From NCBI RefSeq assembly GCF_020966775.1, contig NZ_JAJKFV010000004.1:124001-188000 (forward strand): a stretch of 64,000 bases of DNA, given 5' to 3'. Origin of the DNA: Rhodopirellula halodulae. GTDB taxonomy: Bacteria > Planctomycetota > Planctomycetia > Pirellulales > Pirellulaceae. Of this stretch, positions 5,610-45,182 are shown piece after piece (the first letter of the stretch is position 1; every line of letters begins with the position of its first letter). A program made the translations under genes and the position numbers. Below the pieces are notes generated by a model, which was not told the DNA's origin, ran no database searches, and worked only from the letters and a program-made list of their open reading frames with translations.

Positions 5610-5624
5610 GCAACTGATGTACCA
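5610..5624 (-). promoter_or_regulatory. Sigma-54 promoter for the copper storage gene
   Basis: The minus strand reads TGGTAC-ATCAG-TTGC, with the invariant GG and GC separated by 10 bases. This matches the sigma-54 consensus TGGCAC-N5-TTGC except for C to T at the fourth base, which is a common variant. It points at the gene whose ATG is at 5547. Activator sites would fall in the 3' end of the hydrolase gene. Confidence 0.7.
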
Positions 5625-5642
5625 GTCATTCCGCGCGGGCAG

Positions 5643-6500
5643 TCATTCCGAGGAAGTCGCCTCCAGCCACGCCTCGATGGCTCGGTAAGCGCGATCGCGA
5701 TCCGCTTCAATCAAGAGCGAATGCCTCATGCCCACCAGCGGGACATGTTGGCAATGCGATCCCGCTTGGCGAACGAAGTCAACCGTCGTTTGGGAATCAC
5801 AGAGTTCGTCTTCGCTGCCCGTCAGCACCAGCAAGTCATGTTCAAGCTCGCTTGCGTGATCCAGCAACCAAATTCCGTGATTGAGAAGCTGGCTGCCAAT
5901 CCCAATCGACAAGCTTTCGTGGACCAACTCGTCCGTTGCAATTTTGCGAAGTGCGTCATCGTCCTGCGTCAATTGTGTCGGGTCGATCGATGCCGAAACG
6001 CGAATGTGCGGGATCAGCTTTCCGGTCAGCCAAGCCGCGAAGGCTTGCGGTCGGGTTGGTGGATTGGGCGGCAGAATCATTGGGTTGGTGACCACCGCGC
6101 GGCGGACATGCTGGTTTTCTCGACCGAGCAATTGATTGAGTACCAAGTTGCCGCCCATGCTGTGACCAAGCAAAACCAATTCGGCACTGGGAAACTGCTG
6201 AGCGGCAAAATCCAGTGCAACCGTGATATCGTCGACCAGCGTCTCAAAACTAGGTGCATCGCCACGAGCACCGGGGCTTTCACCATGACCATGTTGATCA
6301 TAAAGGACGACCCCGCGTCCTTTGTCCGTCATCCGCTGAACAAAATCTGGATAGCACCCGACATGCTCGCCCAGTCCATGGACCACCACCCAACATAAAT
6401 CCGCCGCCGCGGGGCCGTCGACTTGGCAGTGCAACTCCCTTCCGTCCAGTGTTTCGAAATGGGTGAGCTCGGAGCTGCTTGGTTCAAGATTGGAAACCAT
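5643..6500 (-). CDS. Alpha/beta hydrolase, monoacylglycerol-lipase-like
   Basis: 285 residues, cytoplasmic. It has the oxyanion-region HGLGEH at about 41-46, the DxHGHGxS strand (YDQHGHGES, about 68-74) and the nucleophile elbow GHSMGG with Ser114. A late Asp (TGSEDELCD) and His (GMRHSLL) complete the triad. This pattern is typical of Hydrolase_4/serine aminopeptidase S33 enzymes such as monoacylglycerol lipases and lysophospholipases; the substrate is not known. It starts 21 bases after the stop of the 93-residue gene on the same strand, so the two form an operon behind the sigma-54 site at 6975-6989. Confidence 0.85.
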   Translation of the reverse strand: MVSNLEPSSSELTHFETLDGRELHCQVDGPAAADLCWVVVHGLGEHVGCYPDFVQRMTDKGRGVVLYDQHGHGESPGARGDAPSFETLVDDITVALDFAAQQFPSAELVLLGHSMGGNLVLNQLLGRENQHVRRAVVTNPMILPPNPPTRPQAFAAWLTGKLIPHIRVSASIDPTQLTQDDDALRKIATDELVHESLSIGIGSQLLNHGIWLLDHASELEHDLLVLTGSEDELCDSQTTVDFVRQAGSHCQHVPLVGMRHSLLIEADRDRAYRAIEAWLEATSSE

Positions 6501-6521
6501 GTTTGGACATCGCCGTGAGTA

Positions 6522-6803
6522 TCACGCGTCTTCGCGTTGGATGAATTTGCAGAAACGACTGACGTCTCCCTCCGCGGTTTCGTCATCGTGCAGAAACGCG
6601 AGTTGAGCTTCTTCGAACTTGGCAAAGAAATCTTCCCAGCTAATCGTCGACAGTTCGTCGTTGCGTCCGCCGTGCGGAAAGTCGATGCGAAGCAACCCAA
6701 CATCGCTATCGGATCGGGTGGTGGATTCGACGGTGGAGGGAACTCCGCCGCGTTCTTGAACCCATTGTTGGATAGTCGAGTGGTCAGTCGTTGTCTTGGC
6801 CAT
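6522..6803 (-). CDS. Conserved 93-residue protein of unknown function
   Basis: Small, acidic and cytoplasmic. It begins MAKTTTDHSTIQQW and carries the pattern GGVPSTVEST, LRIDFPHGG, ISWEDFFAKFEE, LAFLHDDE and SRFCKFI. From memory, this widespread small family is often labelled 1,4-alpha-glucan branching enzyme in databases. Nothing in its sequence supports a catalytic role, since it is far too short and has no GH13 motifs. It is the first gene of a two-gene unit with the hydrolase, preceded by a consensus sigma-54 promoter. A stress-related accessory role is an inference from that context only. Confidence 0.75.
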   Translation of the reverse strand: MAKTTTDHSTIQQWVQERGGVPSTVESTTRSDSDVGLLRIDFPHGGRNDELSTISWEDFFAKFEEAQLAFLHDDETAEGDVSRFCKFIQREDA

Positions 6804-6824
6804 ATCGTAGATCCTCGGAAAGGT

Positions 6825-6840
6825 TGGTCACAAATTTGCA
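6825..6840 (+). promoter_or_regulatory. Possible sigma-54 promoter towards EcsC
   Basis: The sequence TTGGTCACAAATTTGCA has GG (6826-6827), 10 bases, then GC (6838-6839) in a good TTGCA context, but the -24 box is TGGTCA rather than TGGCAC. It lies 272 bases before the EcsC start and inside the transcribed leader of the opposing promoter, so it is less certain than the others. Confidence 0.3.
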
Positions 6841-6886
6841 CAGTGAGACAGACAACACGGAATCGCCAACGCTATCCTGCTCAACG

Positions 6887-6919
6887 GGCCTGCTGAACTG
6901 GCCTGCTGAACTGGCCTGC
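6887..6919. repeat. 13-base tandem repeat, 2.6 copies
   Basis: GGCCTGCTGAACT is repeated exactly at 6887-6899 and 6900-6912, with a partial third copy (GGCCTGC) from 6913. It lies between the two sigma-54-type sites. Confidence 0.85.
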
Positions 6920-6974
6920 GCAGCTAGATTGGTAGCCGGCTTTCACGTGGGTGTGTCGCTGGTGCAATCTCCAC

Positions 6975-6989
6975 GCAAGGTCCGTGCCA
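6975..6989 (-). promoter_or_regulatory. Consensus sigma-54 promoter for the 93-residue gene and hydrolase
   Basis: The minus strand reads TGGCAC-GGACC-TTGC, an exact match to the sigma-54 consensus with correct GG-N10-GC spacing. It lies 172 bases upstream of the ATG at 6803. Confidence 0.75.
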
Positions 6990-7111
6990 CCCAACTGTTC
7001 GATCAAATTTGGATCGCCGAACCCGAGTGAGACTCACCGCAGCGATGGTAGGTTTGGCCCACACTCATCAACCATTCTCGACGCATCGTCGCTTCATCGG
7101 AGAACAAAGTT

Positions 7112-7942
7112 TTGAACGAGAACTTGCTGACGGACGAACTTCCCGCTGATGCTTTGGAAGAACTTCGAATCGCGAAAAAGACGTTGGAGCATCATGGGAT
7201 CGCGGATCGGCTGACCGAGATGATTGGTGCACCGATTACCGCTTCGCTACGCATGCTGCCCGACGGTGTCGAATCCGCAGTCCATGCGGCGATCGATAAA
7301 TCGCTGCACGTCGCATTGGACGTGGCACTCAAAACACTGGGCGAAGGCGAGGGCTCGGGCGGCAAATTGGGCAAACCCAAACTGCTGTCACACAAAGTCC
7401 TGGCCGGTTTGAGTGGGGCCGCGGGAGGTGCGTTGGGCGGAGCGACCGTGGTGGCGGAATTGCCCGTTTCAACGGTGTTGATTCTACGTAGCGTCGCGGA
7501 TATCGCACGCAGTGAAGGCGAGGATTTGGCGCAGGTCGAAACACGTTTGGCGTGCTTGGAAGTCTTCGCATTGGATCCGGGAAATGATGCCGAGATCGAT
7601 GATGAAACCGAGATCGGATACTTCGCCGTACGAGCCGCCATGGCCAAACAGATCAAAGACGCATCGACCTACATTTTGAAACACGGCGTGCGTGACCAAG
7701 CTGCTCCACCTTTGGTTCGCTTGGTGGCTCAAATTGGCAAGCGATTTGGCGTCGTTGTCAGTGAGAAACTGGCGGCTCAGGCGATCCCAGTAATTGGTGC
7801 GGTTGGCGGAGCGTTGATCAACAGCTACTTCATCGATCACTACCAAGATCTCGCTCGGGCCCACTTCACCATCCGCCGACTCGAACGGCAGCACGGCGAA
7901 GCGTTGATTCGCGAAGCCTACTCGAACCTGGAAGTAAAGTGA
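7112..7942 (+). CDS. EcsC family protein
   Basis: 276 residues. The start is a TTG at 7112 with GGAG at 7099-7102; no suitable ATG is present near the conserved beginning. The central Gly/Ala-rich stretch (KVLAGLSGAAGGALGGATVVAELPVSTVLILRS, about 92-124) followed by DIARSEGEDL and CLEVFALDPG is characteristic of EcsC domains. A second Gly-rich segment (AIPVIGAVGGALINSYFIDH) lies near the C-terminus. EcsC proteins are membrane-associated and poorly understood; Bacillus ecsC accompanies an ABC exporter, but no transporter is present here. It sits among stress-type genes and may be sigma-54 dependent (weak site at 6825-6840). Confidence 0.8.
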   Translation: MNENLLTDELPADALEELRIAKKTLEHHGIADRLTEMIGAPITASLRMLPDGVESAVHAAIDKSLHVALDVALKTLGEGEGSGGKLGKPKLLSHKVLAGLSGAAGGALGGATVVAELPVSTVLILRSVADIARSEGEDLAQVETRLACLEVFALDPGNDAEIDDETEIGYFAVRAAMAKQIKDASTYILKHGVRDQAAPPLVRLVAQIGKRFGVVVSEKLAAQAIPVIGAVGGALINSYFIDHYQDLARAHFTIRRLERQHGEALIREAYSNLEVK

Positions 7943-8097
7943 TCGCTTCGGCAATTTCCGTGATTGGCCCCGCATGACGCCGTCCGACAAGACGCGGCCA
8001 GAGAGGTTGCGACCAAACAGAACGCCACACAGCATTGAATGGTCATTTCGCGACCAGGTTGCTCCATGACCGAACGTTTTTCGTGAGAACCGGAGTC

Positions 8098-8131
8098 GAA
8101 CAGTGTTTGCGGCGGAACAGTGCTCGCGGCG
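8098..8131. repeat. 17-base tandem repeat, possible activator site
   Basis: GAACAGTGTTTGCGGCG (8098-8114) is followed directly by GAACAGTGCTCGCGGCG (8115-8131), with two mismatches. It lies 61-94 bases upstream of the sigma-54 promoter, the usual place for enhancer-binding-protein sites. Confidence 0.7.
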
Positions 8132-8191
8132 GATTGATTGGGTGACAAGATGCTTTGCACCGATCCCAAAATTCCTTTCTCCAGCTGGGAT

Positions 8192-8207
8192 TGGTACGAC
8201 CTTTGCA
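8192..8207 (+). promoter_or_regulatory. Sigma-54 promoter for the AI-2E permease gene
   Basis: TGGTAC-GACCT-TTGCA, with GG at 8193-8194 and GC at 8205-8206 separated by 10 bases. It differs from consensus only by C to T in the -24 box. It is 139 bases upstream of the ATG at 8346. Confidence 0.7.
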
Positions 8208-8345
8208 ATTTCAGACGTCGCTCGCGGAAATGCTGGGGTTTCTGGCGAATGCACGGTGTAGGTTTCCTCCCGCGACTCGATAGTTTGCGGTGATCGGCCA
8301 AGACCGGTAGCTGTTTGAATCACCCTGCTGAGCCATTTCACCGCA

Positions 8346-9563
8346 ATGACCAACACGCAATCCGATGAGGTGCTTCAGGCAGAGCCCTCCCCAATCGATC
8401 GACGAATGGGCGTTCTATCAGCCCGCATCTGTGCGGCAATGTTGGTGCTCTACGCGTTGTACTACGCTCGCAGTTTGGTGATTCCCGTGGTCACCGCGAT
8501 CGTGCTCTACCTGACGTTGCGACCGATCGTCCGACAAGGAAAACGCTGGGGCGTCCCGTCGTCGATCGGTGCGATTGGCATCATCGTCGGCATCCTGCTG
8601 ATGCTGGGACTGGGAACGTACGTGGTGATCGAACCTGTGAAGGAGAGCATTGCGGATGCACCGCAACACCTCGCCGAAGTCAAAAGCAAGTTGGCTTTCA
8701 TCACCGATCGATTGCAAGACGTCGACGAAGCAACCGCTGAACTGGCGGAAGCGGAACGCGAATCGGAGGCGGACTCGGCTCGTGAGAAACCCGTTCCCGT
8801 TGAAATCAAACAACCGACTTGGACGAGCGGCTGGTCTTACTTGAGTGGCACTGGAAATGTCGTCTCGTTCTTAACCATCTGCATCGCACTACTGTACTTT
8901 CTGCTCGCCACAGGAGACGACTTGCTGCGAAGCGTGATGCGTTCGCTTCCCAGTTTCTCTTCGCGAAGGAAACTGGTTGAGGTCATTGAAAACGTACAAG
9001 AAGGTCTGGGTAGTTATCTCGCCCAGGTATCGGCCATCAACGCTGGATTGGGCGTGGTGGTTGGCGTCGCGATGTGGATCCTCGGAATGCCCTCGCCGAT
9101 ACTGTGGGGCGTGATGGCGTTTGCATTCAACTTCATCCCGATCGTGGGAGCGATCGCGGGTGCGGGAATCATTTTCTTCGTCGCGTTGTTGAACTTCGAC
9201 CCCGCTTACTACGCCTTTGTCGTGACGCTGGTGTTCATGACCTTGACGTCTCTGGAAGGACAATTCATTACGCCGGCGATTTTGGGACGGTCCATGCAAA
9301 TCAGTCCGGTGCTGGTTTTCCTGTCCATCGTCGTTTGGGGATGGATGTGGGGAATCATGGGCGTCTTCCTCAGCGTTCCAATCTTGATCGCAGTTCGCAT
9401 GGCGTGTGAGGGCTACGACGAATTGCGACCTTTGGCGATGATCCTGGGTGCGGAACAACCCAAGACAGACGACCAAGCCGAACGCTCCGTCACACGAGAA
9501 GCGGCGAGCAACGAACGAACACCGTCGGAATCAGCGATGACAACTTCTGTCACCGCGAACTGA
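8346..9563 (+). CDS. AI-2E family transporter (PerM/UPF0118)
   Basis: 405 residues with the family's usual layout: two or three N-terminal membrane helices (MLVLYALYYARSLVIPVVTAIVLYL region), a hydrophilic acidic loop (about 110-155), then five helices. The conserved blocks ISAINAGLG-like (SAINAGLGVVVGV), PSPILWGVMAF, NFIPIVGAIAGAG and the late LEGQFITPAILG are present. Members export small molecules or act as Na+/H+ antiporters; the substrate cannot be told. The C-terminal 40 residues are polar. No ribosome site is obvious. The next gene starts 30 bases after the stop, so it is probably co-transcribed. A sigma-54 promoter lies upstream. Confidence 0.88.
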   Translation: MTNTQSDEVLQAEPSPIDRRMGVLSARICAAMLVLYALYYARSLVIPVVTAIVLYLTLRPIVRQGKRWGVPSSIGAIGIIVGILLMLGLGTYVVIEPVKESIADAPQHLAEVKSKLAFITDRLQDVDEATAELAEAERESEADSAREKPVPVEIKQPTWTSGWSYLSGTGNVVSFLTICIALLYFLLATGDDLLRSVMRSLPSFSSRRKLVEVIENVQEGLGSYLAQVSAINAGLGVVVGVAMWILGMPSPILWGVMAFAFNFIPIVGAIAGAGIIFFVALLNFDPAYYAFVVTLVFMTLTSLEGQFITPAILGRSMQISPVLVFLSIVVWGWMWGIMGVFLSVPILIAVRMACEGYDELRPLAMILGAEQPKTDDQAERSVTREAASNERTPSESAMTTSVTAN

Positions 9564-9592
9564 CATCCAACTCTTCTCCATTCGGTTCACTG

Positions 9593-10645: not shown

Positions 10646-10663
10646 CTACAAAGCCGTGGCATA

Positions 10664-11173
10664 CTAACTTTCGGAGCCAATGCACTGATCGTGAACCACT
10701 CCATAGACGGAAAGTTGGATCCCTTCCGATTGGTAGTGGCAAATGATCTCGGCGTTCTCGATGAGTTCGCATTGCAACTCAGAACCCGGTGGGTGCATCT
10801 TCGGAACGGACATGCTGAGGTCGAACTGATCCAACTGCGACTTGGCGCCACCGGCGACCAAGTTGCCGAGTTCTTTGGCGGCATCCAGAACGTCCTCGTC
10901 CGGGATGTTGTCATCCATCCCAAGAATTTTGGACGACCACTGTAGAGCCGAGTTTTTATCCAACAGCAGCACCACGGTGCCGGAGATTTTGCCTTGCCAG
11001 TCAAGTGAGATGAGCCAGCAAGGCGATTCGCTGTCCAATGACGCAGCCCCCGTGAACTCGGAAGCTTCGATCTTCTCGATGTCGGATCCGACCATCATTT
11101 GAAATGTGTTCTGAACCGACGAATCGATCGCCGACGCGATGACTTGTTCAATGGTGAGAAGTTCGGTGCTCAT
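10664..11173 (-). CDS. cheX: CheX-type chemotaxis phosphatase
   Basis: 169 residues. It carries the CheC/CheX/FliY helix signature ExxN (AAKELGNLVAGGAKSQL), which holds the Glu and Asn that hydrolyse phospho-CheY. A start at 11173 is supported by GGAG a few bases upstream. It is the last gene of the chemotaxis cluster. Since no cheZ is present, this and its paralogue at 11787 are the likely CheY-P phosphatases. Confidence 0.85.
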   Translation of the reverse strand: MSTELLTIEQVIASAIDSSVQNTFQMMVGSDIEKIEASEFTGAASLDSESPCWLISLDWQGKISGTVVLLLDKNSALQWSSKILGMDDNIPDEDVLDAAKELGNLVAGGAKSQLDQFDLSMSVPKMHPPGSELQCELIENAEIICHYQSEGIQLSVYGVVHDQCIGSES

Positions 11174-11229
11174 AGGTTCTCCGAGCGTTGCGTCACGTTG
11201 GGTCGGCCGCGACGGACGGCCGAGTGGAC

Positions 11230-11601
11230 TCAGCTGCTTGCTTGAGGAAGCACGCGTTCCAACTTGGCTTGCAGCATGGGTTGGTCAAAGGGTTTCACGA
11301 GATAGTCGTTCACGCCGGCTTGAATGGCTTCCAGCACGCGGCCCTTTTCGGCTTCCGTGGTGATCATCATGATAGGCACCTTGGACCCCGTTCCGCGAAT
11401 CGCTTGCACCAACTCCAAACCGTTCATGTTGGGCATATTCCAGTCGGTCAACACCAAATCAATGTTGGGGTCTTTTTTAAACTCTTCGAATGCGATGGCG
11501 CCGTCGGCTGCCTCCACCACGTCATCGACCCACAGGCTATTGAGCCCTCGGGCAATGATCTTACGCATGACACCCGAATCTTCTGCCAGCAAAACTTTCA
11601 T
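11230..11601 (-). CDS. cheY: CheY-like response regulator
   Basis: 123 residues, a single receiver domain. It has an acidic pair E7/D8, phosphoacceptor Asp53 (LVLTDWNMPNMNG), a Thr in MMITTEA and the Lys of DYLVKPFD. With no output domain, it fits the motor- or target-binding CheY. A GGAGAAACGAGAG leader supports the start. It sits between the two cheX-like genes, which should dephosphorylate it. Confidence 0.88.
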   Translation of the reverse strand: MKVLLAEDSGVMRKIIARGLNSLWVDDVVEAADGAIAFEEFKKDPNIDLVLTDWNMPNMNGLELVQAIRGTGSKVPIMMITTEAEKGRVLEAIQAGVNDYLVKPFDQPMLQAKLERVLPQASS

Positions 11602-11666
11602 CTCTCGTTTCTCCGTCTCTGTCTTTTTTGCTAAGGTTTAATAGTGATTGGCCGAGCCCTAAGGAA

Positions 11667-11771
11667 ACCTACCTTCCCAATCGTTCGAAGGCAGGTCTGA
11701 CAAGGGGTGCAAATTGAACGGCAATGCATGTCATCAAGGTTTATGCCATGCCGTTCCACCTTGGCACCCTT
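11667..11771 (-). other. Two stem-loops in the cheX-cheY intergenic region
   Basis: The first is ACCTACCTTC (11667-11676) with GAAGGCAGGT (11687-11696), a 10-base stem with one mismatch or wobble. The second is a long interrupted stem: GGGGTGC (11704-11710) with GCACCC (11764-11769), and inside it GAACGGCA (11716-11723) with TGCCGTTC (11749-11756). Neither is followed by a clear U-run on the minus strand, so they may act in mRNA processing or stability rather than as terminators. Confidence 0.55.
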
Positions 11772-11786
11772 ATGGATTTTCGACGC

Positions 11787-12260
11787 TTATGAATTTGAGT
11801 CGAGGTGGCAAATGGAAACGGTGAAGTCCGTCCCATTGCTGTGAAGTGCGATGTCTTGCGTGTGAACCACGTTTGCAAGTTTGAAATCCAGTCCGCTGCC
11901 GCTGGCCACGCTTGGCAAAGACAACGAGGACTGCCCCGGCAAGATCGCTTTGATGCTGCCGCCGACCATGTTGGAAAGTTCCGCAATGGTGTCTTGGACA
12001 TCTTCCATGGACACGTCGGATTCCGGCATCATCAACATGGCTCCGGCCGCCTTGCGTCCCAGTTCCAAGGGAGTGTTGATCTCCACCGCGCCTGTCCAAT
12101 CGCCTTGGATTTGAACGCAGCCAACCAAACGGTCCGCTTCGGGGTCTTGTTGGGCTGCAGTTGCATCGGCGGAAGGTTCACAAGGCATTTGCAACATGTT
12201 GTCAAAGATCGCCTGAACAAGCTGAACGACGTTCTCGGGTTCAATCGGTTGGATGTCCAT
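11787..12260 (-). CDS. CheX/CheC-like phosphatase paralogue
   Basis: 157 residues from ATG at 12260 (the frame extends 28 codons further, but conservation-like sequence begins at MDIQPIEPE). It carries a CheX-like pattern: DWTGAVEINTP, ELGRKAAGAMLMM, and the catalytic helix DTIAELSNMVGGSIKAIL with Glu and Asn in the ExxN spacing. A Gln/Asp/Glu-rich insert lies near residues 30-45. It differs considerably from the cheX at 10664, so the two may act on different receivers (the free CheY at 11230 and the one at 14363). Confidence 0.75.
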   Translation of the reverse strand: MDIQPIEPENVVQLVQAIFDNMLQMPCEPSADATAAQQDPEADRLVGCVQIQGDWTGAVEINTPLELGRKAAGAMLMMPESDVSMEDVQDTIAELSNMVGGSIKAILPGQSSLSLPSVASGSGLDFKLANVVHTQDIALHSNGTDFTVSICHLDSNS

Positions 12261-12294
12261 GGTTTCGCTTTCTTTAGAAGGATTTGTGCGAGAC

Positions 12295-12353
12295 TTGGTT
12301 TCAGTGGGTGATGTGATCTGTTCATACGAACGCCACGCGATCACTCAAACCAA
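12295..12353 (-). other. Stem-loop in the cheR-cheX intergenic region
   Basis: TTGGTTT (12295-12301) pairs with AAACCAA (12347-12353), and inside it GTGATC (12313-12318) pairs with GATCAC (12339-12344). It fills most of the gap between cheR and the cheX paralogue. No U-run follows. Confidence 0.5.
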
Positions 12354-12390
12354 AAGGAATTTGATGTCGAAATGGTTTTCGACCAACGAT

Positions 12391-13230
12391 TCAGACGGGG
12401 CGGTAGTACACAGTACGATCTACCTGAGTGCGTTCAAACTCATCTGTGAGATTCATCGTGTTTTCGGATCCACCCAGGAAGAGAATGCCGTCCTCGCGGA
12501 TTCTCTGGCGCACCTTTGCAAGGATCTCCCGTTTGGTGTCGGGCGTGAAATAGATCAGCACGTTGCGTAGGAACACCACATCGACGGACATCAGCGTAAG
12601 CGGCCAATTTTCGATCAGATTGACGCTGTCGAACCGAACCATCGAACGGATGTCGTCGTTGATTCGCCAATGGACCCCGTCGCGATGGAAGTACTTCATC
12701 AACAACTGCATTGGTAGGCCACGGTTGACCTCCGTTTGATTGAAGATTCCGTTCTCGGCACGTTCCAGGATCTCCGACGAGAGGTCGGTGGCTCGCAGAC
12801 GCACGTCCCAACCCGCAAGTTGTGGAAAGTGTTCGCGAATCATCATCGCGATTGAGTAGATTTCTTGACCGCTGGAACAAGCGTTGGACCAAATCGTCAA
12901 ACGTTTTTCGTTGCTGCGTTTTTCGATCAGCTCGGGAAGGAGCTTGGTTCGCAGTAAGTCGAACGGATGGATGTCTCGATAGAAGCTCGTTTCATTGGTG
13001 GTCATCGCGTCAACGACGGCCTCTGCCAACTTGCGTTGGTTCGGTTTACGAAGCGTTTCCGCGAGTTCGCTGATGGAATCCAAACCATGTTCGCGAGCGA
13101 CCGGGTTCAACCGAGACTCCACCAAGTACGACTTACTCGGTTCGAGCACGATGGCAGAACGATCGAGAACGAGCTTTGCAAGGAAATCAAAGTCTTCCGT
13201 CGAGAGTGAATCGGCGGTGCATGTTGTCAT
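12391..13230 (-). CDS. cheR: Chemotaxis protein methyltransferase CheR
   Basis: 279 residues, normal CheR length. It uses S-adenosylmethionine to methylate glutamates of chemoreceptors. An N-terminal helical domain is followed by NETSFYRD (about 79-86), the SAM-binding segment WSNACSSGQEIYSIAM, ATDLSSEIL, and VFLRNVLIYF with DTKREIL near the C-terminus, all family signatures. No TPR extension is present. Its ATG overlaps the cheB stop by four bases, so the two are translationally coupled. Confidence 0.95.
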   Translation of the reverse strand: MTTCTADSLSTEDFDFLAKLVLDRSAIVLEPSKSYLVESRLNPVAREHGLDSISELAETLRKPNQRKLAEAVVDAMTTNETSFYRDIHPFDLLRTKLLPELIEKRSNEKRLTIWSNACSSGQEIYSIAMMIREHFPQLAGWDVRLRATDLSSEILERAENGIFNQTEVNRGLPMQLLMKYFHRDGVHWRINDDIRSMVRFDSVNLIENWPLTLMSVDVVFLRNVLIYFTPDTKREILAKVRQRIREDGILFLGGSENTMNLTDEFERTQVDRTVYYRPV

Positions 13231-22017: not shown

Positions 22018-24453
22018 ATGGACAAGCTCTGGAATCGTTGGGTAGGTGGTTCGAAGTCGAAACGAACAAAGACACAAACGCGTCGCATGCGACGGCGGCG
22101 TCTCAGATCCGAGAGCTTGGAGACTCGAAAGTTGTTGGCGGCCAACCTCTTTCACAACGAAGCGTTCCCGGAGGACGTGAACGAAGATGGCGAAGTATCC
22201 GCACTCGACGCTCTCACCGTGATCAACGCCATGGGCGAAGAGGGCACGGCCGAACCCATTGGATCGCTGGAGCCACTTTCGGCTCAGGGCAACGCTGATC
22301 TGCAGCAGCGACGTCGGGGCCGAATGACGGATGTCAACAACGACGGACGTAACTCGGCTCTCGACGCGTTGATGGTGATCAACCGCTTGAATCGCCAGCG
22401 TCACGAGAACAACCGGGACGATCCCGGAACGGACGATCCAGCAACGGAGGTACCAGGAGCGGACGATTCAAACGAATCCCCGACCGATGCAGACACGACC
22501 ACCGATGAAATTCGTTCGATTGATGGCACGGGAAACAATGTCGACAATCCGGACCTGGGATCGGCCAACACGCCCCTGCTGCGAGTCGCTGACAACGATT
22601 ACGCGGACGGAATTTCAGAGCCCGCGGGGGCGGACCGCCCGAGTGCCCGTGAGATCAGCAACGCGTTGTCGGCTGCGGATCCCGACGGAACAACCAATGA
22701 ACGCGGTTTGAGCTCCTTCGTGTTTGCATGGGGACAATTTTTGGACCATGACATCGATCTGTCGCTCGAACCCGAGACCGATGGCGAATCCTTCGACATT
22801 GAAGTCCCCGCCGGCGACCCGCTGTTCGATCCCTTCAATACCGGTGAAGCGACGATCCATCTGACTCGATCGGAAATCGCGGAAGGAACGGGGACATCCG
22901 TCGACAATCCTGCCGAGCAAGTCAACGCGATCACCGCGTTCATTGATGGCTCGCAAGTTTACGGCAGTGACCAAGCGACGGCTGATTCATTACGAGAATT
23001 TGTCGGCGGACGATTGTTGATCACGGAAGACGGCTTGCTCCCCAATGACGACAACCAAGGCGTCTTGGCGGGTGACATCCGCGCCGCCGAGAACGTGGTG
23101 CTCACTTCCATGCATGCTCTGTTCGTTCGCGAACACAATCGTTTGGCCGATGAAATCGCTGCGGAAAACCCGTCTCTCAGTGATGAAGAAATCTACCAAG
23201 AAGCTCGCACGATCGTGATCGCTGAGATGCAGTCGATCACCTACAACGAATTCTTACCAGCCTTGCTGGGTGACGATGCTCTCTCGCGATACACGGGCTA
23301 TGACGCGAACGTTGACCCGTCCATCGCGAATGAATTTTCGACCGCGGCATTCCGTTTCGGCCACACCACTCTGAACGATTCGTTCCGATTCGTGGATGAT
23401 GATGGCAACGAGATCGCCGAAGATGTCTCGCTGGCCAACGCGTTCTTTCAGCCGGAGATGCTGGAGGAGACCGGGATTGATCCGCTGTTGAAGTACGCTG
23501 CATCGACGCTGTCGCAGGAGGTTGATCTGGAGGTGGTGGACAGTTTGCGGAATTTCCTTTTTGGGCCTCCGGGAGCCGGCGGGTTTGATTTGATTTCGTT
23601 GAACATCCAACGTGGACGCGACCACGGACTGGCTGATTTGAACTCGGTCCGTGAGGCGTACGGACTGGAAACCTACGAGTCATTCGATCAAATCACCTCG
23701 GACGCGAATTTGGCCTCCGAGTTGGAATCGCTTTACGGCGATGTGAACAACATCGATCTTTGGGTGGGGATCTTGGCCGAGGACCGCACGGAGAATGGAT
23801 CGCTCGGTGAGACCGCCACCACCATCATCGCCGATCAGTTCGAACGATTGCGAGATGGCGATCGGTTCTATTACGAAAACACCATGTCAGATCGCGAGAT
23901 CCGTGAGATCGAAAACACGACGCTCAGCGACGTCATCGCTCGCAACACCAACTTGAATTCATTGCAGGACGATGTGTTTTTCTTCTCTCCTGAGATTTCC
24001 GGCACCGTGATGGCTCAAGCGTCCACCACGACGACCTCAACGAGTGATGGTAAAGGCGAAGACCTCTTCGCTCCCACCTTGATTGAGGAAGATGCCTTGG
24101 AAACACTCGCACGTGACAGCGGTCGGCAAAGAGACCAAAGCCAAGATGCTTCCGGCCGGAACGATCGCGGTCAAAAAGATCGCCCACGCGATGACGGTGA
24201 ACAAGACACACCTCTCGAGCCAATGGTGGGAGCGGTGCTGGAATTGGTCGATGGTGAGGGTACCGTGGTGGACGTGGCGATCACGGATGAGATGGGCCGA
24301 TATCGCTTCGATTCGGTCGACGAATCCGGAGCCTACGTCGTTCGCATGGCATTGTCCGATGACTACGTGGTCCTGGGGAACGACGCCTTGGATGTTCAGC
24401 TCAGCAACGGCGAAGAGAACTACCGCGGGATGGATTTCGTGGTATTGGTCTAG
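22018..24453 (+). CDS. Exported animal-type haem peroxidase with dockerin repeats
   Basis: 811 residues. An Arg/Lys-rich N-terminus ends in SLETRKLLA (about 33-41), the planctomycete surface-protein leader. Two dockerin-like calcium loops follow (DVNEDGEVSALDALTVIN at 53-70 and DVNNDGRNSALDALMVIN at 105-122), then a Thr/Asp/Pro-rich linker. The An_peroxidase domain (about 220-620) has distal His244 in WGQFLDHDID, a likely Arg397 and proximal His449 in FRFGHT, then NIQRGRDHGL. An acidic linker leads to a C-terminal SdrD/CNA-B-like domain (about 735-811, YRFDSVDESGAYVVR). It probably oxidises halides or phenolics outside the cell, anchored through dockerin contacts. It stands alone with a terminator after it. 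Confidence 0.88.
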   Translation: MDKLWNRWVGGSKSKRTKTQTRRMRRRRLRSESLETRKLLAANLFHNEAFPEDVNEDGEVSALDALTVINAMGEEGTAEPIGSLEPLSAQGNADLQQRRRGRMTDVNNDGRNSALDALMVINRLNRQRHENNRDDPGTDDPATEVPGADDSNESPTDADTTTDEIRSIDGTGNNVDNPDLGSANTPLLRVADNDYADGISEPAGADRPSAREISNALSAADPDGTTNERGLSSFVFAWGQFLDHDIDLSLEPETDGESFDIEVPAGDPLFDPFNTGEATIHLTRSEIAEGTGTSVDNPAEQVNAITAFIDGSQVYGSDQATADSLREFVGGRLLITEDGLLPNDDNQGVLAGDIRAAENVVLTSMHALFVREHNRLADEIAAENPSLSDEEIYQEARTIVIAEMQSITYNEFLPALLGDDALSRYTGYDANVDPSIANEFSTAAFRFGHTTLNDSFRFVDDDGNEIAEDVSLANAFFQPEMLEETGIDPLLKYAASTLSQEVDLEVVDSLRNFLFGPPGAGGFDLISLNIQRGRDHGLADLNSVREAYGLETYESFDQITSDANLASELESLYGDVNNIDLWVGILAEDRTENGSLGETATTIIADQFERLRDGDRFYYENTMSDREIREIENTTLSDVIARNTNLNSLQDDVFFFSPEISGTVMAQASTTTTSTSDGKGEDLFAPTLIEEDALETLARDSGRQRDQSQDASGRNDRGQKDRPRDDGEQDTPLEPMVGAVLELVDGEGTVVDVAITDEMGRYRFDSVDESGAYVVRMALSDDYVVLGNDALDVQLSNGEENYRGMDFVVLV

Positions 24454-40024: not shown

Positions 40025-40059
40025 CGCGGTCGCAATCCGCATAAAGGTTCCTTTCTGAT

Positions 40060-40075
40060 TGGTTCGGCTTTTGCA
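40060..40075 (+). promoter_or_regulatory. Sigma-54-like promoter for exoD
   Basis: TTGGTTCGGCTTTTGCA: GG (40061-40062), 10 bases, GC (40073-40074), with a good TTGCA -12 box but TGGTTC instead of TGGCAC at -24. It lies 69 bases upstream of the ATG at 40143, in the same orientation. Confidence 0.4.
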
Positions 40076-40142
40076 ACGTCAATACTTCTCCTTGAAAATT
40101 CGCGACCTCCGCTGCCGAGGAATTGAACCCCAGGTATTGAAG

Positions 40143-40739
40143 ATGAGTATTGACCACCAGGCTCCCATCGAGCAGATCCTTCACCGCATCGACGACATTG
40201 CAGAGCAGAACGAACGCATCCAATTCGGCCAAGTCATGGACGCGGTCGGTCGCAATTCGTTCGCGTCGCTGTTGTTGGTGGTTGGTGCCATCATGTTGCT
40301 GCCCGGGCCCGCGGACTTACCGGGTGTCCCGGTGCTGCTGGGGGCCATCGCGATTTTGTTGTGTGGTCAGATGCTCGCGCATCGCGATCATGTTTGGATT
40401 CCGCATTGGATTGAGCGGCGAGAGATCAGCCAGGACAAGATGAAGAAGATGCTGGATTGGCTGCGACGTCCCGCCGCGTGGTTGGATTCCATGACCGCCG
40501 AACGCTGGACGTTCATGATGAATCACGCGACGATCAGCACGTTGGCGGTCGCCGCAATCCTGGTCGCGATGAGCACACCAATTCTGGAATTCATCCCCTT
40601 CAGCGCAAACCTCGCCGGAGGAGCCATCTTCGCATTCGCACTGGCCATCCTGGCCCGAGATGGATTGCTGGCGGGATTGGCGGTGTGCATCTCAATCGCG
40701 ACGTTCGGCTTGGTGGGATACCAATTCTTCGTCAACTGA
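40143..40739 (+). CDS. ExoD family membrane protein
   Basis: 198 residues from ATG at 40143 (the frame extends upstream without conserved sequence). An N-terminal polar helix (IEQILHRIDDIAEQNERIQFGQVMDAVGR) is followed by paired hydrophobic segments: SFASLLLVVGAIMLLPGPADLPGVPVLLG, about 20 residues of polar loop, then three C-terminal membrane helices. This is the ExoD pattern, named from exopolysaccharide production in Rhizobium, with unknown biochemistry. It follows the CHAD gene after 118 bases, with a candidate sigma-54 promoter between them. Confidence 0.88.
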   Translation: MSIDHQAPIEQILHRIDDIAEQNERIQFGQVMDAVGRNSFASLLLVVGAIMLLPGPADLPGVPVLLGAIAILLCGQMLAHRDHVWIPHWIERREISQDKMKKMLDWLRRPAAWLDSMTAERWTFMMNHATISTLAVAAILVAMSTPILEFIPFSANLAGGAIFAFALAILARDGLLAGLAVCISIATFGLVGYQFFVN

Positions 40740-40784
40740 GTTGGCAACGCGAATCAAGAAACTTCGCAAAAAAACTTTGATCGG

Positions 40785-40811
40785 TGTCGATCCACTCGAA
40801 GGCCGTTCGAC
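40785..40811 (+). promoter_or_regulatory. Possible ECF42-type promoter for the YCII/SnoaL gene
   Basis: TGTCGA (40785-40790), 17 bases, then CGAC (40808-40811). From memory, ECF42 sigma factors recognise TGTCGA at -35 with a short CGA/TC-like -10. It lies about 147 bases before the ATG at 40958. The region around it (40740-40957) holds no gene. Confidence 0.3.
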
Positions 40812-40957
40812 CACTCTGTAATTCGCGACTGATTCTTAGGTGACACGCTGGGAACGGTTCGCGGTCTCGTTGGAGTTCCGTCACGCAGACTGCGGTTTGA
40901 TGGGATACAACGTCTGAATGTGATCGAAATCGAGACGAACTTGCCCGGAGAGACACA

Positions 40958-41839: not shown

Positions 41840-41984
41840 CGGTTTGTTCACACAGCAGGCATGCGAACCGAGACAGCGCGATACGCATGGTTGAATCGGT
41901 CAATCCAATGACACGTTGCCGGCAAGAGGCAACGCGTATCAAATTCGATGCAGCAGACTTTTCAATTCCAACACGAGACAAGAC

Positions 41985-42455
41985 ATGTTTTCTCAACCGC
42001 AATCTGAACACGAATGGCTGGAACAATTGGTGGGTGAATGGAAATTCGAACACGAGTGTTCCATGCCCGATGGATCGATCAATCAAGCGGAAGGCAAGAT
42101 GACTTGCCGCACCTTGAATGGGATGTGGCTGCTGAGTGAATCCAGTGGCGAATCGGAGGAAGGAGCTTGGTCCTCTTTGATGAGCATTGGATTTGATCCC
42201 AAGTTGGGTCACTACGTTGGCACATTCATGGGTTCGATGATGGCGAACATTTGGCACTACCAAGGATGTCTGGACGAGTCGAAAACCCGACTTCAACTCG
42301 CTGCGGAAGGCCCCAAGTTTGAAGGCGAAGGAACGGCTCACTATCGCGACACGATCATTGTCATCGACGAAAACAACTGGCGAATGACTAGCGAAATGCA
42401 AACGGATGACGGGGAATGGGTGCAATTCATGAGCGGCAAGCATACGCGTGTCTAA
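41985..42455 (+). CDS. DUF1579 family protein
   Basis: 156 residues from ATG at 41985. The DUF1579 pattern is clear: EHEWLEQLVGEWKFEHEC at the start, TCRTLNGMWLLSES, SIGFDPKLGHYVGTFMGSM, and the last strand WVQFMSGKHTRV. It is a calycin-like beta-barrel of unknown function, frequent next to YCII/DGPF and SnoaL genes. It has no signal peptide and sits between two YCII genes. Confidence 0.85.
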   Translation: MFSQPQSEHEWLEQLVGEWKFEHECSMPDGSINQAEGKMTCRTLNGMWLLSESSGESEEGAWSSLMSIGFDPKLGHYVGTFMGSMMANIWHYQGCLDESKTRLQLAAEGPKFEGEGTAHYRDTIIVIDENNWRMTSEMQTDDGEWVQFMSGKHTRV

Positions 42456-42547
42456 CATGCTGCAACCGGCTTGTGGGTCTGAAATGCAATCGCCTTTGAC
42501 TGGCTCAGGTCAATGAGTTTGTTCCCATTCACTGAGGTTCGAGATCG

Positions 42548-43330
42548 ATGAAGTACATGTTGTTGATATACAGTGCGGAAAATGATTGGACGGAAGACGA
42601 ACGCCGGGCGTGCATGATCGAATCCATGGGCATCTGCGAAGAGCTTGCTGAGTGTGGCACGTGGATTGACTCCGCACCTTTGCATCCCGTGAGCACATCC
42701 ACCACGGTTCGTGTCCGTGAAGGATCGTGCGAAGTCACGGATGGACCCTTTGCGGAAACCATCGAGCAACTTGGCGGCTATTACATCATTGACGTGAAAG
42801 ATCAGCAGGAGGCAATCGACATTGCGAGCCGTTTGCCACCTGCGAAGAAAGGCACCGTCGAGATCCGGCGGCTCACGGAACTATCCGGCGAATTATCACT
42901 TCCGCCGTCACAGGCACCCGCTTGGAAAGAAGGGCAGGCGGGCTCGCTGAATGAAGGCAAAGACTATCTGCTCATGCTTTTCTCAGAGGAAGGTGTGTGG
43001 CAACCGGAGGAACACGCGATCGCATTGAACGAATCTGTCGACCTCTGTCATGAACTGGATCGTTGCGGTCAATATCGTTCGGCTTCGCCCTTGGAGCCTG
43101 CTTCTTCGGCCGTTTGCGTTCGCGTCCGTCGCAACGAATGTGAAGTGACCGATGGGCCTTATCCGGAAACCAAAGAGCAATTGGCGGGGTATTTTCTGGT
43201 CCACGCATCGGATTTGAACCAAGCCATTAGCATCGCCTCGCGAATTCCCGCGACGACGCGTGGTACCACCGAGATTCGACCTCTGTTTCCCTTGCCGACG
43301 GTCAACACGTCTTCGGCTTCGGCGAATTGA
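42548..43330 (+). CDS. Tandem YCII/DGPF protein
   Basis: 260 residues made of two YCII domains. The first is about 1-115 (KYMLLIYSAEND, CEVTDGPFAETIEQLGGYYIIDV, IEIRRL-like VEIRRL) and the second about 140-255 (DYLLMLFSEEGV, CEVTDGPYPETKEQLAGYFLVHA, EIRPLF). This looks like an internal duplication. YCII members with His/Asp pairs can act as dehydrochlorinase-like enzymes, but DGPF proteins near ECF sigma factors have no known activity. Its stop is 15 bases from the stop of the convergent sigma gene. Confidence 0.9.
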   Translation: MKYMLLIYSAENDWTEDERRACMIESMGICEELAECGTWIDSAPLHPVSTSTTVRVREGSCEVTDGPFAETIEQLGGYYIIDVKDQQEAIDIASRLPPAKKGTVEIRRLTELSGELSLPPSQAPAWKEGQAGSLNEGKDYLLMLFSEEGVWQPEEHAIALNESVDLCHELDRCGQYRSASPLEPASSAVCVRVRRNECEVTDGPYPETKEQLAGYFLVHASDLNQAISIASRIPATTRGTTEIRPLFPLPTVNTSSASAN

Positions 43331-43345
43331 TCAGATCGCGAAAAA

Positions 43346-44596
43346 CTAGGTCGTTGTGATGAGCGCGATCTTGCGAGTTAGAAAGCGTTGCTCAGCCTCA
43401 TTGGTGGAAAACGACAATGCCTTCTCGAACGCGATCTTCGCTTCCGGCAATCGTTGCAGGCGTCGCAACAATTCGCCGCGAGCTGAGTGAGCAAGAGAAT
43501 GTTCAGCCAAGGCGCCCGAGTCCAAAATCTCGTCGATTAGCGTTAGTCCCGCCGCAGGATCATCCCGCATCGCAACCGCGACGGCACGGTTCAGGCTAAC
43601 GATCGGCGAGGGTTGGATTCGGACGAGGATGTCATAGAGAGCGACAATTTGACGCCAGTCCGTCTCTTCAGGAGTCTTGGCATCGGCGTGCACCGCTGAA
43701 ATGGCAGCTTGGATGGTGTACGTTCCGATCCGCTTGGTTCTCAATGTTTGCCGTAGGAAGCGTTGCCCTTCCTCAATCAAAGACTGGTTCCAACGACTCC
43801 GGTCCTGTTCTTCCAGCAACACGATGTCGCCATTCTTATCCATTCGAGTTGCGCGCCGAGATTCGTGAAGCAGCATCAACGCGAGCAATCCGCCCACCTC
43901 GGGGTCGGGCAGCAAGCGGTGTAGCAAACGAGCCAACCGGATGGCTTCGTTGGACAAATCCGATCGTGTCAAATGTTCGCCGCTCGATGCCGAGTAGCCT
44001 TCGTTGAACACCAGATAAATCACCGACAGCACGGCATCCAAACGCGAAGGAAGCTCCGAAACGGATGGGATTTCAAATGGGATTCCCGCATCTCGAATCT
44101 TCGCTTTGCCACGTACGATTCGCTGCGCCATCGTCGAGGGCTTCATCAGAAACGCCCGTGCGATTTCTTCTGTGGTCATCCCGCAAACCTCCCGCAAGGT
44201 TAGCGGTACTTGGACTTTTTGATCAATCGCTGGGTGACAGCAGGTAAAGATCAGCCGCAAGCGATCGTCTTGGATTTCGTGATCCGATCCGTCCGCATTG
44301 GCGGCTTCCAATTCGCCAACTCGTCTTATCAGTTCCGGTTGCAGATCCTGGAATTTTTGTCGGCGTCTGATTCGGTCCACGGCGCGGAAACGGCCCGTGG
44401 AGATCAGCCAGGATGTCGGATTGTCAGGGACGCCTTCGGTTGCCCATTGCTGCATCGCGGCAGCGAAAGCCTCATGCATCGCTTCTTCAGCGAGGTCAAA
44501 ATCACCCACCAAGCGAATCAGACTCGCGAAAACTCGCCGAGAATCCTCGCGGTAAATCCGTTCAATCGTTTTTGAGACAGAATCATCCAGGCTCAT
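43346..44596 (-). CDS. ECF42-type sigma factor with TPR-like C-terminus
   Basis: 416 residues from ATG at 44596 (MSLDDSVSK); the frame extends 25 codons upstream without conserved sequence. Region 2 is at about 10-80 (RIYREDSRRVFASLIRLVGDFDLAEEAMHEAF, AVDRIRRRQ). Region 4 is at about 115-175 (LTLREVCGMTTEEIARAFLMKPSTMAQRIVRGK). A long helical extension follows (about 185-415), with YLVFNEGYSASSGE, RLLHRLLPDPEVGGLLALMLLHESRR and repeats ending in LPEAKIAFEKAL. This is the ECF42 layout, in which the TPR-like tail is needed for activity and no anti-sigma factor is encoded. It should activate the YCII/DGPF genes. Confidence 0.9.
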   Translation of the reverse strand: MSLDDSVSKTIERIYREDSRRVFASLIRLVGDFDLAEEAMHEAFAAAMQQWATEGVPDNPTSWLISTGRFRAVDRIRRRQKFQDLQPELIRRVGELEAANADGSDHEIQDDRLRLIFTCCHPAIDQKVQVPLTLREVCGMTTEEIARAFLMKPSTMAQRIVRGKAKIRDAGIPFEIPSVSELPSRLDAVLSVIYLVFNEGYSASSGEHLTRSDLSNEAIRLARLLHRLLPDPEVGGLLALMLLHESRRATRMDKNGDIVLLEEQDRSRWNQSLIEEGQRFLRQTLRTKRIGTYTIQAAISAVHADAKTPEETDWRQIVALYDILVRIQPSPIVSLNRAVAVAMRDDPAAGLTLIDEILDSGALAEHSLAHSARGELLRRLQRLPEAKIAFEKALSFSTNEAEQRFLTRKIALITTT

Positions 44597-44771
44597 CCCA
44601 GCGCCGGCCACCACCGAAGTTCTCGAAGTCACGAACAAAACGGCGAAACGTTTGTTGCCTCGGGCAATCAAATCGTCTCAAGCCACAGCCGGTAACTTAC
44701 TTCAAGACGAACCGCGTGGTGCGACGGATCGGCCGTTGCGTTGGGATAATTTGCTGGAACGAATGCGAAAC

Positions 44772-45017
44772 TCATTCAGTCACAACGTCGACTGGTTCTC
44801 GATCAATGCTGGCGTCAATGGACTCAGCGGCGCGATCGATGGTTTGAGCGGCACCGTCGGCAGCATCCTTTGACGTTTCTACCAAAGAAGAGGTGTCTTG
44901 CCGCACCTTATCGGTGTCAACTCGAACGGTTGGATCGCCATCGTCCGATGTGAACCGCAACCATCCAAGAACGACCAAGACCAAAACAATCGCGGCGATG
45001 AAGATGAAGGCTCGCAT
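44772..45017 (-). CDS. Small single-span membrane protein
   Basis: 81 residues from ATG at 45017, with GGAG upstream. One membrane helix (AFIFIAAIVLVLVVLGWLRF, about 3-22) is followed by a polar, Asp/Ser-rich helical tail with repeated DxxRxxxES-like heptads, as in proteins that sit on the membrane and carry a coiled tail. No family is recognised. Its promoter at 45126-45140 is a sigma-54 match, divergent from the GH13 gene. It lies 175 bases upstream of the sigma factor gene on the same strand and could be co-transcribed with it. Confidence 0.7.
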   Translation of the reverse strand: MRAFIFIAAIVLVLVVLGWLRFTSDDGDPTVRVDTDKVRQDTSSLVETSKDAADGAAQTIDRAAESIDASIDREPVDVVTE

Positions 45018-45086
45018 GATGCACTCCGTTGAAGAGGATTGAGGAAACAAAATCGACGCGTCGGTTTTCGCCGCGTTGTCGTCGAG

Positions 45087-45109
45087 CGTTTGGTCCTCAG
45101 AGCCAAACG
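45087..45109. repeat. Inverted repeat, possible activator site
   Basis: CGTTTGG (45087-45093) and CCAAACG (45103-45109) with a 9-base spacer. It lies 58-80 bases upstream of the plus-strand sigma-54 promoter and inside the leader of the minus-strand one. Confidence 0.5.
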
Positions 45110-45125
45110 CGTTGAGGGTGCAAAA

Positions 45126-45140
45126 GCATTTGTCGTGCCA
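45126..45140 (-). promoter_or_regulatory. Sigma-54 promoter for the small membrane protein gene
   Basis: The minus strand reads TGGCAC-GACAA-ATGC, with GG and GC 10 bases apart and one deviation in the -12 box. It lies 109 bases upstream of the ATG at 45017. Confidence 0.6.
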
Positions 45141-45166
45141 GCAATCTGTTCGCCGAGGAATCAACG

Positions 45167-45182
45167 TGGCACGAGAATTGCC
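45167..45182 (+). promoter_or_regulatory. Consensus sigma-54 promoter for the GH13 gene
   Basis: TGGCAC-GAGAA-TTGCC, an exact match with GG-N10-GC. It lies 118 bases upstream of the ATG at 45300 and 26 bases from the divergent site at 45126-45140. Confidence 0.75.

What the first reader, a model, noticed from the sequence alone, without database searches (positions are those of the whole stretch)
5610..45182. Dispersed sigma-54 regulon of stress-type genes
Four sites match TGGYAC-N5-TTGC with exact GG-N10-GC spacing, at 5610-5624 (-), 6975-6989 (-), 8192-8207 (+) and 45167-45182 (+). A fifth (45126-45140, -) has one deviation, and weaker ones lie at 6825-6840 and 40060-40075. With equal base frequencies the strict pattern would be expected about twice per million positions per strand, so four in a few kb of intergenic DNA is far from chance. 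The strict sites and the 45126 site all point at a nearby start. Targets are a copper storage protein, a small protein with hydrolase, AI-2E permease, a GH13 enzyme and a small membrane protein, with ExoD and EcsC as weaker candidates. I know of no described planctomycete regulon of this composition.
Basis: partly seen in the sequence, partly recalled or inferred. Interest (0 to 1): 0.75.

Follow-up and report, generated by a model that had tools for sequence, protein, structure and literature searches.

The report
Sigma-54 stress-gene regulon in a planctomycete
Several stress-type genes scattered in this planctomycete carry the same rare kind of gene switch (a sigma-54 promoter), the switch is kept in close relatives, and it appears to belong to a larger stress regulon centred on a gene island elsewhere in the genome that encodes its own activator.

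Summary
The sites exist and exceed chance: six intergenic -24/-12 sites in the window against 0.42 expected (0 of 200 shuffles). The 'weak' ExoD site is real; the EcsC candidate (6825) and a strict match in a peroxidase gene (22441) are not supported. The window genes look like satellites of an island on contig C29 (about 2.28-2.36 Mb): 19 intergenic sites against 0.97 expected, before MgtC, DUF3140, DUF2383, AI-2E and other genes and before an NtrC-type activator. Orthologues of window genes lie beside this activator in 3 of 14 relatives looked at. Strict sites elsewhere precede DnaK, Hsp20 and csrA. Best reading: sigma-54 with a phosphorelay-type activator drives a general stress response. 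Against: no shared enhancer motif; island Dps, catalase and CsbD have no strong site of their own; distant Csp3 and GlgB-like homologues mostly lack sites. Some planctomycete sigma-54 promoters were predicted before. No experiment exists.

The parts
5610..5624 (-). sigma-54 type -24/-12 site, 62 bp before the ATG of the Csp3 gene
   Evidence: score 13.0; site at 55-69 bp in 18 of 18 close homologues
5215..5547 (-). cytosolic copper storage protein, Csp3-like (110 aa)
   Evidence: phmmer to RkCSP3 (6zif, 2e-15) and CSP3 (5fig, 1e-5); no Pfam or NCBIfam family at 0.001
6975..6989 (-). sigma-54 type site, 171 bp before the 93-aa protein
   Evidence: score 16.4; sites 18.2, 16.1, 14.4 in 3 of 3 relatives
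6522..6803 (-). small protein (93 aa), no family
   Evidence: orthologues in 3 relatives
5643..6500 (-). S33-type alpha/beta hydrolase, probably second gene of the same transcript
   Evidence: Pfam Hydrolase_4; no site of its own in 3 of 3 relatives; co-transcription inferred
8192..8207 (+). sigma-54 type site, 139 bp before AI-2E permease
   Evidence: score 18.2; sites at 3 of 4 orthologues >=68% identical
8346..9563 (+). AI-2E family permease
   Evidence: Pfam PF01594
9593..10645 (+). putative zinc metallopeptidase (Peptidase_Mx), probably same transcript as AI-2E
   Evidence: Pfam PF15887; co-transcription inferred
7112..7942 (+). EcsC family protein; beside the activator gene in relative G001, but no convincing site here
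   Evidence: Pfam PF12787; weak sites 11.4-12.2 in 3 of 4 relatives
   Evidence: score 9.9
22441..22455 (-). strict pattern match inside a haem peroxidase gene, antisense: probably chance
40060..40075 (+). sigma-54 type site before ExoD (TGGTTC-N5-TTGCA)
   Evidence: score 14.4; conserved block in the alignment of 4 species; 3 of 3 orthologues
40143..40739 (+). ExoD family membrane protein
   Evidence: Pfam PF06055, scanned in the longer frame 40059-40739
45126..45140 (-). sigma-54 type site, 108 bp before small membrane protein
   Evidence: score 15.9; 4 of 6 orthologues at >=11.5
44772..45017 (-). small membrane protein (81 aa; membrane nature by eye)
   Evidence: translation; no NCBIfam family
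45167..45182 (+). sigma-54 type site, 118 bp before the GH13 gene
   Evidence: score 16.5; identical 16-mer in G004, G005 and G010
45300..47159 (+). GH13 enzyme, GlgB-like branching-enzyme relative (619 aa)
   Evidence: Pfam; best NCBIfam models GlgB and TreZ, all below cut-off; PDB GlgB relatives

Best explanation
The sites are sigma-54 (RpoN) promoters of a general-stress regulon. RNA polymerase with sigma-54 waits at these promoters; an NtrC-type activator encoded in the C29 island (gene C29:2291951-2293417, receiver + AAA + Fis-type HTH), probably phosphorylated through a neighbouring Hpt-like protein and a CheB-CheR-PAS-histidine kinase, opens them under stress. Its own gene carries such a site (positive feedback). 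The island holds the core genes, many as later members of transcripts; the window holds satellites (copper storage, GlgB-like enzyme, AI-2E permease, ExoD, small proteins). Shown here: the sites, their excess over chance, their conservation in close relatives, the island, and linkage of window-gene orthologues to the activator in some relatives. Inferred: transcription from the sites, the phosphorelay, co-transcription, and that this one activator serves the window promoters.
For: Excess over shuffles in window and island (6 vs 0.42; 19 vs 0.97; 0 of 200 each). Conservation (18 of 18; 17 of 20, reversed 1 of 20, non-target neighbours 0 of 9). Island sites at >=12.5: 17 of 22 intergenic and within 300 bp of a start in the right direction, reversed matrix 1 of 11. 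Around activator relatives in 80 GTDB loci: 58 vs 2 control sites (21 loci, >=69% identity), 52 vs 2 (32 loci, 50-68%), 22 vs 5 (27 loci, <50%). Beside the activator in relatives: EcsC, Peptidase_Mx and AI-2E in G001, GlgB-like gene in G003 and G011 (the G001 AI-2E is closer to the window's, 56%, than to the island's, 46%). CsbD genes across the order: 17 of 30 loci with a site >=12.5, reversed 0 of 30; in 10 of 25 genomes with both, CsbD lies within 15 kb of an activator homologue. Other strict sites precede DnaK, Hsp20, csrA, aconitase, DUF1206. One RpoN in 40 of 40 genomes, own included; proteobacterial RpoS over cut-off in 0 of 40. In R. baltica Dps RB4433 (162 aa) and PNPOx RB4438 (160 aa) are induced by heat, cold and salt (PMC2754498, Table 1); genes of these lengths and kinds (by eye) lie in the island of G004, downstream of an Hva1-like gene with a site of 15.3, 84 bp upstream.
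Against: No shared upstream activator motif. 16 strong sigma-54 activators in the genome (19 matches), so others could serve these promoters; neighbourhoods of unrelated activators were not scanned as a control. In the own island Dps, catalase, CsrA, BON/MscS, Pmp3 and flagellin have no site >=9 within 350 bp, Hva1 scores 10.7, PNPOx 11.6, CsbD 9.5 and the kinase 11.3, so several typical stress genes depend on inferred transcripts or weak sites. Csp homologues outside the close group: 0 of 13 above 9.3, including G194 of the same family, which has a 74% activator relative. GlgB-like gene: 1 of 10 orthologues at 57-64% identity. Genes of the 80 loci without sites also include CsbD and BON proteins. 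R. baltica rpoN was not seen regulated by heat and was lowered by salt (PMC2754498, passages). PhyR-domain matches over cut-off occur in 12 of 40 genomes, though not in the own one. Genome-wide the strict pattern is not in excess.
Confidence: 0.63

Rival explanations
1. The sites are real sigma-54 promoters, but several different activators control them, so the window genes and the island are not one regulon; the stress flavour is only shared gene type.
For: 16 strong activators in the genome, no common upstream motif, a second activator 48% identical to the first in the own genome.
Against: Orthologues of window genes sit beside the activator in G001, G003 and G011; sites crowd around its relatives.
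Confidence: 0.3
2. The regulon is a developmental or stationary-phase (swarmer/sessile) programme rather than a stress response.
For: A flagellin gene and CsrA lie in the island, though without sites of their own; Csp3, ExoD and a branching-enzyme-like gene would fit storage and surface change.
Against: Hsp20 and DnaK carry strict sites, CsbD genes carry sites across the order, and the R. baltica Dps and PNPOx genes respond to three stresses (PMC2754498).
Confidence: 0.2
3. For the Csp3 genes the conserved block is mainly an operator of a copper-sensing repressor (CsoR-like, ATACC..GGTAT; name recalled) and only looks like a -24 element.
For: 13 of 20 aligned Csp promoters share ACCCC about 4 bases before TGGTATG (my count).
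Against: GG and TTGC at fixed spacing are kept in the copies lacking that block, the window copy among them. Dual control remains possible.
Confidence: 0.1
4. Chance matches to a short pattern.
For: No genome-wide excess of the strict pattern.
Against: Shuffles, reversed-matrix controls and conservation at orthologues.
Confidence: 0.02

Closest known systems
Predicted sigma-54 regulon of Pirellula sp. strain 1 (Studholme and Dixon 2004; not held, seen only as cited in PMC2754498 and PMC12316311)
   Same: Same group of bacteria, same promoter type; promoters of csrA and thioredoxin RB10378 are cited from it.
   Different: Whether it names the island, Csp3, AI-2E, ExoD or the GlgB-like gene could not be checked.
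aRpoNDB, sigma-54 regulons across phyla (PMC12316311; outline and passages seen)
   Same: Reports chaperone, UspA, MscS, CsrA and NtrC-type genes enriched in Planctomycetia.
   Different: COG-level statistics; main text has no hit for CsbD or 'general stress' nor for copper, AI-2E or EcsC. Its database and supplements were not viewed.
General stress regulons of RpoS, SigB and EcfG/PhyR (recalled)
   Same: Overlapping gene kinds: Dps, catalase, CsbD, OsmY/BON, small membrane proteins.
   Different: Those use sigma-70 family factors; here the promoters are sigma-54 type.
Rrp2-RpoN-RpoS pathway of Borrelia (search listing and abstract starts only)
   Same: An activator with sigma-54 at the head of a broad response.
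   Different: There sigma-54 turns on RpoS; here no RpoS passes the cut-off and effector genes carry the sites themselves.
R. baltica common stress response and stress cluster RB4432-4438 (PMC2754498; section 5 part 1 and passages seen)
   Same: Dps and PNPOx of the island are in it.
   Different: In the passages seen sigma-54 is proposed only for thioredoxin RB10378.

Membership tests
sigma-54 (-24/-12) promoter | GG and GC elements 10 bp apart, TGGCAC-N5-TTGC-like | tested here: met
sigma-54 (-24/-12) promoter | Intergenic, pointing at a nearby start | tested here: met
   six of the window sites; 22441 not
sigma-54 (-24/-12) promoter | Conserved at close orthologues | tested here: met
   18 of 18; 17 of 20; lost further out
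sigma-54 (-24/-12) promoter | RpoN present in the genome | tested here: met
sigma-54 (-24/-12) promoter | Upstream activator binding sites | tested here: inconclusive
   no convincing motif
sigma-54 (-24/-12) promoter | Transcription start 12 bp downstream, RpoN-dependent | not testable with these tools
   needs RNA data
NtrC-type sigma-54 activator (C29:2291951-2293417) | Receiver, AAA sigma-54 interaction domain, Fis-type HTH | tested here: met
   GAFTGA visible in the translation
General stress regulon | Many stress-type effector genes under one promoter class | tested here: inconclusive
   met for DnaK, Hsp20, MgtC, DUF3140, DUF2383, Csp3; own Dps, catalase, CsbD without a strong site
General stress regulon | Induced by several unrelated stresses | tested here: inconclusive
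   literature only, two matched R. baltica genes (PMC2754498)
General stress regulon | Single master regulator controls all members | not testable with these tools
   linkage only
RpoS-type general stress response | RpoS present | tested here: not met
   0 of 40 genomes over cut-off
PhyR/EcfG-type general stress response | PhyR sigma-like domain | tested here: inconclusive
   none in the own genome; over cut-off in 12 of 40 genomes, two of them same-genus (G003, G012); whether these are PhyR or ECF factors was not examined
SigB-type general stress response | SigB and its partner-switch proteins | not tested
   no search made
Csp3 copper storage protein | Homology to Csp3, Cys-rich, no export signal | tested here: met
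   cysteines and lack of signal judged by eye

The most novel reading that the evidence does not exclude
In Pirellulales sigma-54, not a sigma-70 family factor, is the general stress sigma factor: a CheB-CheR-kinase/Hpt/NtrC-type phosphorelay opens dozens of sigma-54 promoters for chaperones, DNA and oxidative protection, copper storage, envelope and reserve-glucan genes, an enhancer-dependent counterpart of the RpoS, SigB and EcfG solutions.
Probability: 0.42. Interest if true: 0.85.

Novelty: new variant of a known kind. Interest (0 to 1): 0.66.

Why it matters
How planctomycetes run a general stress response is open: no RpoS passes the cut-off and R. baltica has 37 ECF factors (PMC2754498, passage). 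If sigma-54 does it, the response is enhancer-dependent and ATP-driven, unlike the RpoS, SigB and EcfG solutions. The prediction is concrete: named promoters, one activator, one kinase, and a copper-storage gene whose site is kept at 55-69 bp in 18 of 18 close homologues.

Tried and rejected
The EcsC site at 6825 (score 9.9) and the strict match at 22441 inside a peroxidase gene were rejected. A shared activator site was sought by dyad counts in 30 and then 150 upstream regions and in the Csp alignment; the best dyad (TGG-N11-TCA, 38 of 150 vs 101 of 997, uncorrected 1e-7) showed no preferred distance. Promoter alignments: only the ExoD one puts the window site in register with the relatives'; in those for the GlgB-like gene, the 93-aa protein and AI-2E the window site falls out of register, so they are not used as evidence. 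Pfam contrast of 115 genes behind sites and 115 others in the same loci was weak: CsbD 6 vs 4, BON 4 vs 4, receivers 13 vs 14; clearer for DUF1328 (7) and DUF2383 (5), neither among the 25 families shown for the controls. For that contrast 124 targets were cut to 115 and 860 controls sampled to 115 after removing near-duplicates and genes cut by locus ends. CsbD: a first method placed starts in 20 of 30 loci (13 with sites), a second took all 30 (17), where three loci cut short by contig ends are misplaced. In one search matches under 68% identity, under 55 residues or starting after residue 36 were dropped. Linkage used activator matches down to about 1e-133; G248 has CsbD but was not searched for the activator; the own genome was left out. 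The matrix is my approximation of published -24/-12 frequencies (recalled), not fitted here; genes were called by my own codon-usage script, which misses Csp3 (added by hand).
Full report
What was checked. A fifth strict match at 22441 lies antisense inside a haem peroxidase gene and was not listed. The strict pattern is expected 0.32 times in the window. With a 16-column matrix, the intergenic DNA of the window has 6 sites at >=12.5 against 0.42 in shuffles (0 of 200 reach 6), while 40 kb of flanking DNA has none. By score and place the six are before Csp3, the 93-aa protein, AI-2E, ExoD, the small membrane protein and the GH13 gene.

Genome context. The genome (6.61 Mb, 33 contigs) has 29 strict sites, fewer than the reversed pattern (54), so the pattern is not enriched overall. 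But 18 of 29 are intergenic; 16 of these are within 300 bp of a called start in the right direction, and the Csp3 site makes 17. Outside window and island their genes are Hsp20, a DEAD-box helicase (RecQ-like by eye), DUF1206, aconitase, DnaK (Hsp70), CsrA and an AraC-type regulator. A second cluster of 7 lies on C29. Scanning 120 kb there gave 19 intergenic sites at >=12.5 against 0.97 in shuffles; in the first scan 17 of 20 intergenic ones were 14-274 bp before a gene.

The island. Genes directly behind sites of >=12.5 include MgtC, DUF3140, a DUF2383-type protein, a PLP enzyme, AI-2E, a quinone-oxidoreductase-like enzyme, a deaminase, an epimerase, an APP1-type phosphatase, a glycosyltransferase, MatE, a receiver protein and several small proteins (families). 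Dps, catalase, BON/MscS, Pmp3 and CsrA also lie there but have no site >=9 of their own; Hva1, at the head of the Dps gene group, scores 10.7, CsbD 9.5. In G004 the corresponding Hva1-like gene has a site of 15.3, and CsbD orthologues of G023 and G008 have 14.1 and 12.5-16.5. The island contains an NtrC-type activator (C29:2291951-2293417; REC, AAA, HTH) with its own site 152 bp upstream (13.5; 14.7 in G004, 16.4 in G023, 15.5 in G025). Next to it is a 116-aa protein without Pfam match; I take it for an Hpt protein from its place, from 38% identity to proteins in the same place in G001 and G011, and from Hpt matches among genes of related loci, which is inference. A 1636-aa CheB-CheR-PAS-kinase-receiver protein is encoded 6 kb away, with a weak site here (11.3) and 14.0 in G004.

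Relatives. Orthologues of the window genes at >=68% identity: sites >=11.5 in 3 of 3 (93-aa protein), 3 of 4 (AI-2E), 3 of 3 (ExoD), 4 of 6 (small membrane), 4 of 4 (GlgB-like), together 17 of 20 (15 of 20 at >=12.5), reversed matrix 1 of 20 (0 of 20); EcsC 2 of 4; hydrolase, Peptidase_Mx and ECF factor 0 of 9. In the fourth AI-2E case (G018) a site of 17.2 stands before the preceding gene. The ExoD element is a conserved block in diverged intergenic DNA of four species. Csp3 homologues were found in 11 of 14 genomes; all 18 genes tested (19 loci, one fragment dropped) have a site 55-69 bp before the start, 15 of them >=12.5, reversed 0, and so does the second copy in the own genome (14.5). 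Against this, GlgB-like orthologues at 57-64% identity have a site in 1 of 10, and 13 more distant Csp homologues, from a class sample in which 11 of 198 genomes had any, have none above 9.3.

Link to one activator. Orthologues of the activator are in all 12 same-genus relatives examined (77-92% identity); 28 of 40 genomes, own included, have a match at E<=1e-100. In 80 GTDB loci around its relatives (the best 80 of 260) sites outnumber the reversed control 58:2, 52:2 and 22:5 in three identity classes; unrelated activators were not scanned for comparison. In G001 the activator, an Hpt-like gene, EcsC (74%), Peptidase_Mx, a large CheB-type gene (by eye), AI-2E (56%) and a CsbD-like gene (by eye) are neighbours within about 20 kb; in G003 and G011 a second copy of the activator lies within 8 kb of the GlgB-like gene. 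That is 3 of the 14 relatives whose tables I compared. CsbD genes in the order have a site in 17 of 30 loci (reversed 0), and in 10 of 25 genomes with both lie within 15 kb of an activator homologue. The own genome has 16 strong activators and no common upstream motif was found, so assignment to this one activator is inference.

Stress. Every one of 40 genomes has one RpoN and none has RpoS over cut-off. PhyR-domain matches over cut-off occur in 12 of 40, none in the own genome; SigB was not searched. In R. baltica, heat, cold and salt all induce Dps RB4433 (162 aa) and PNPOx RB4438 (160 aa) (PMC2754498, section 5 part 1 and passages seen). G004, whose contig length equals the R. baltica chromosome as I recall it, has genes of 162 and 160 aa of these kinds (by eye) in its island. 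The same paper reports rpoN not regulated under heat and lowered under salt, and cites a predicted sigma-54 promoter for thioredoxin RB10378.

Known work. Sigma-54 promoters of Pirellula sp. strain 1 were predicted in 2004 (not held). PMC12316311 (2025; outline and passages) finds chaperones, UspA, MscS, CsrA and NtrC-type genes enriched in Planctomycetia, with no hit for copper, AI-2E, EcsC, CsbD or 'general stress' in its main text. Searches for a planctomycete sigma-54 general stress response listed no paper that states it in title or abstract start (open-licence library only; the papers listed and 69 other than PMC12316311 were not opened). So the promoter type in this phylum is known, parts of the target list are published at COG level, and the joined picture of island, activator, satellites and conserved promoters appears new within what I could search.

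Verdict. Sites as sigma-54 promoters: about 0.9. One regulon under the C29 activator: about 0.5. Physiological role as general stress response: about 0.55.

Noticed in passing
Csp3 promoters in relatives (loci between L246 and L264, and L279), not in window 5547-5640: 13 of 20 aligned copies share ACCCC about 4 bases before TGGTATG, a CsoR-like inverted repeat overlapping the -24 element, suggesting copper repression on top of sigma-54 control (operator name recalled).
   Followed up: partly
between site and ATG of Csp3 genes in relatives: A GCGGC-AACGG-GGCCGC-like inverted repeat lies in the leader of most copies by eye; role unknown.
   Followed up: no
window 10664-13230: Two CheX-like proteins and a CheR side by side.
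   Followed up: no
window 43346-44614: ECF sigma factor with DUF6596 next to YCII-domain genes; no sigma-54 site in 3 of 3 relatives.
   Followed up: partly
window 22018-24453: Animal-type haem peroxidase with dockerin and planctomycete extracellular motif.
   Followed up: no
G000 C29:2339801-2347096: 2431-aa dockerin protein (weak Calx-beta match) just after catalase, with a strict sigma-54 site 275 bp upstream.
   Followed up: no
L140-L141 (G025, another family): 14 intergenic sites in 40 kb around a 53% activator homologue, reversed control 0, before CsbD-like, AI-2E-like and small membrane genes.
   Followed up: partly
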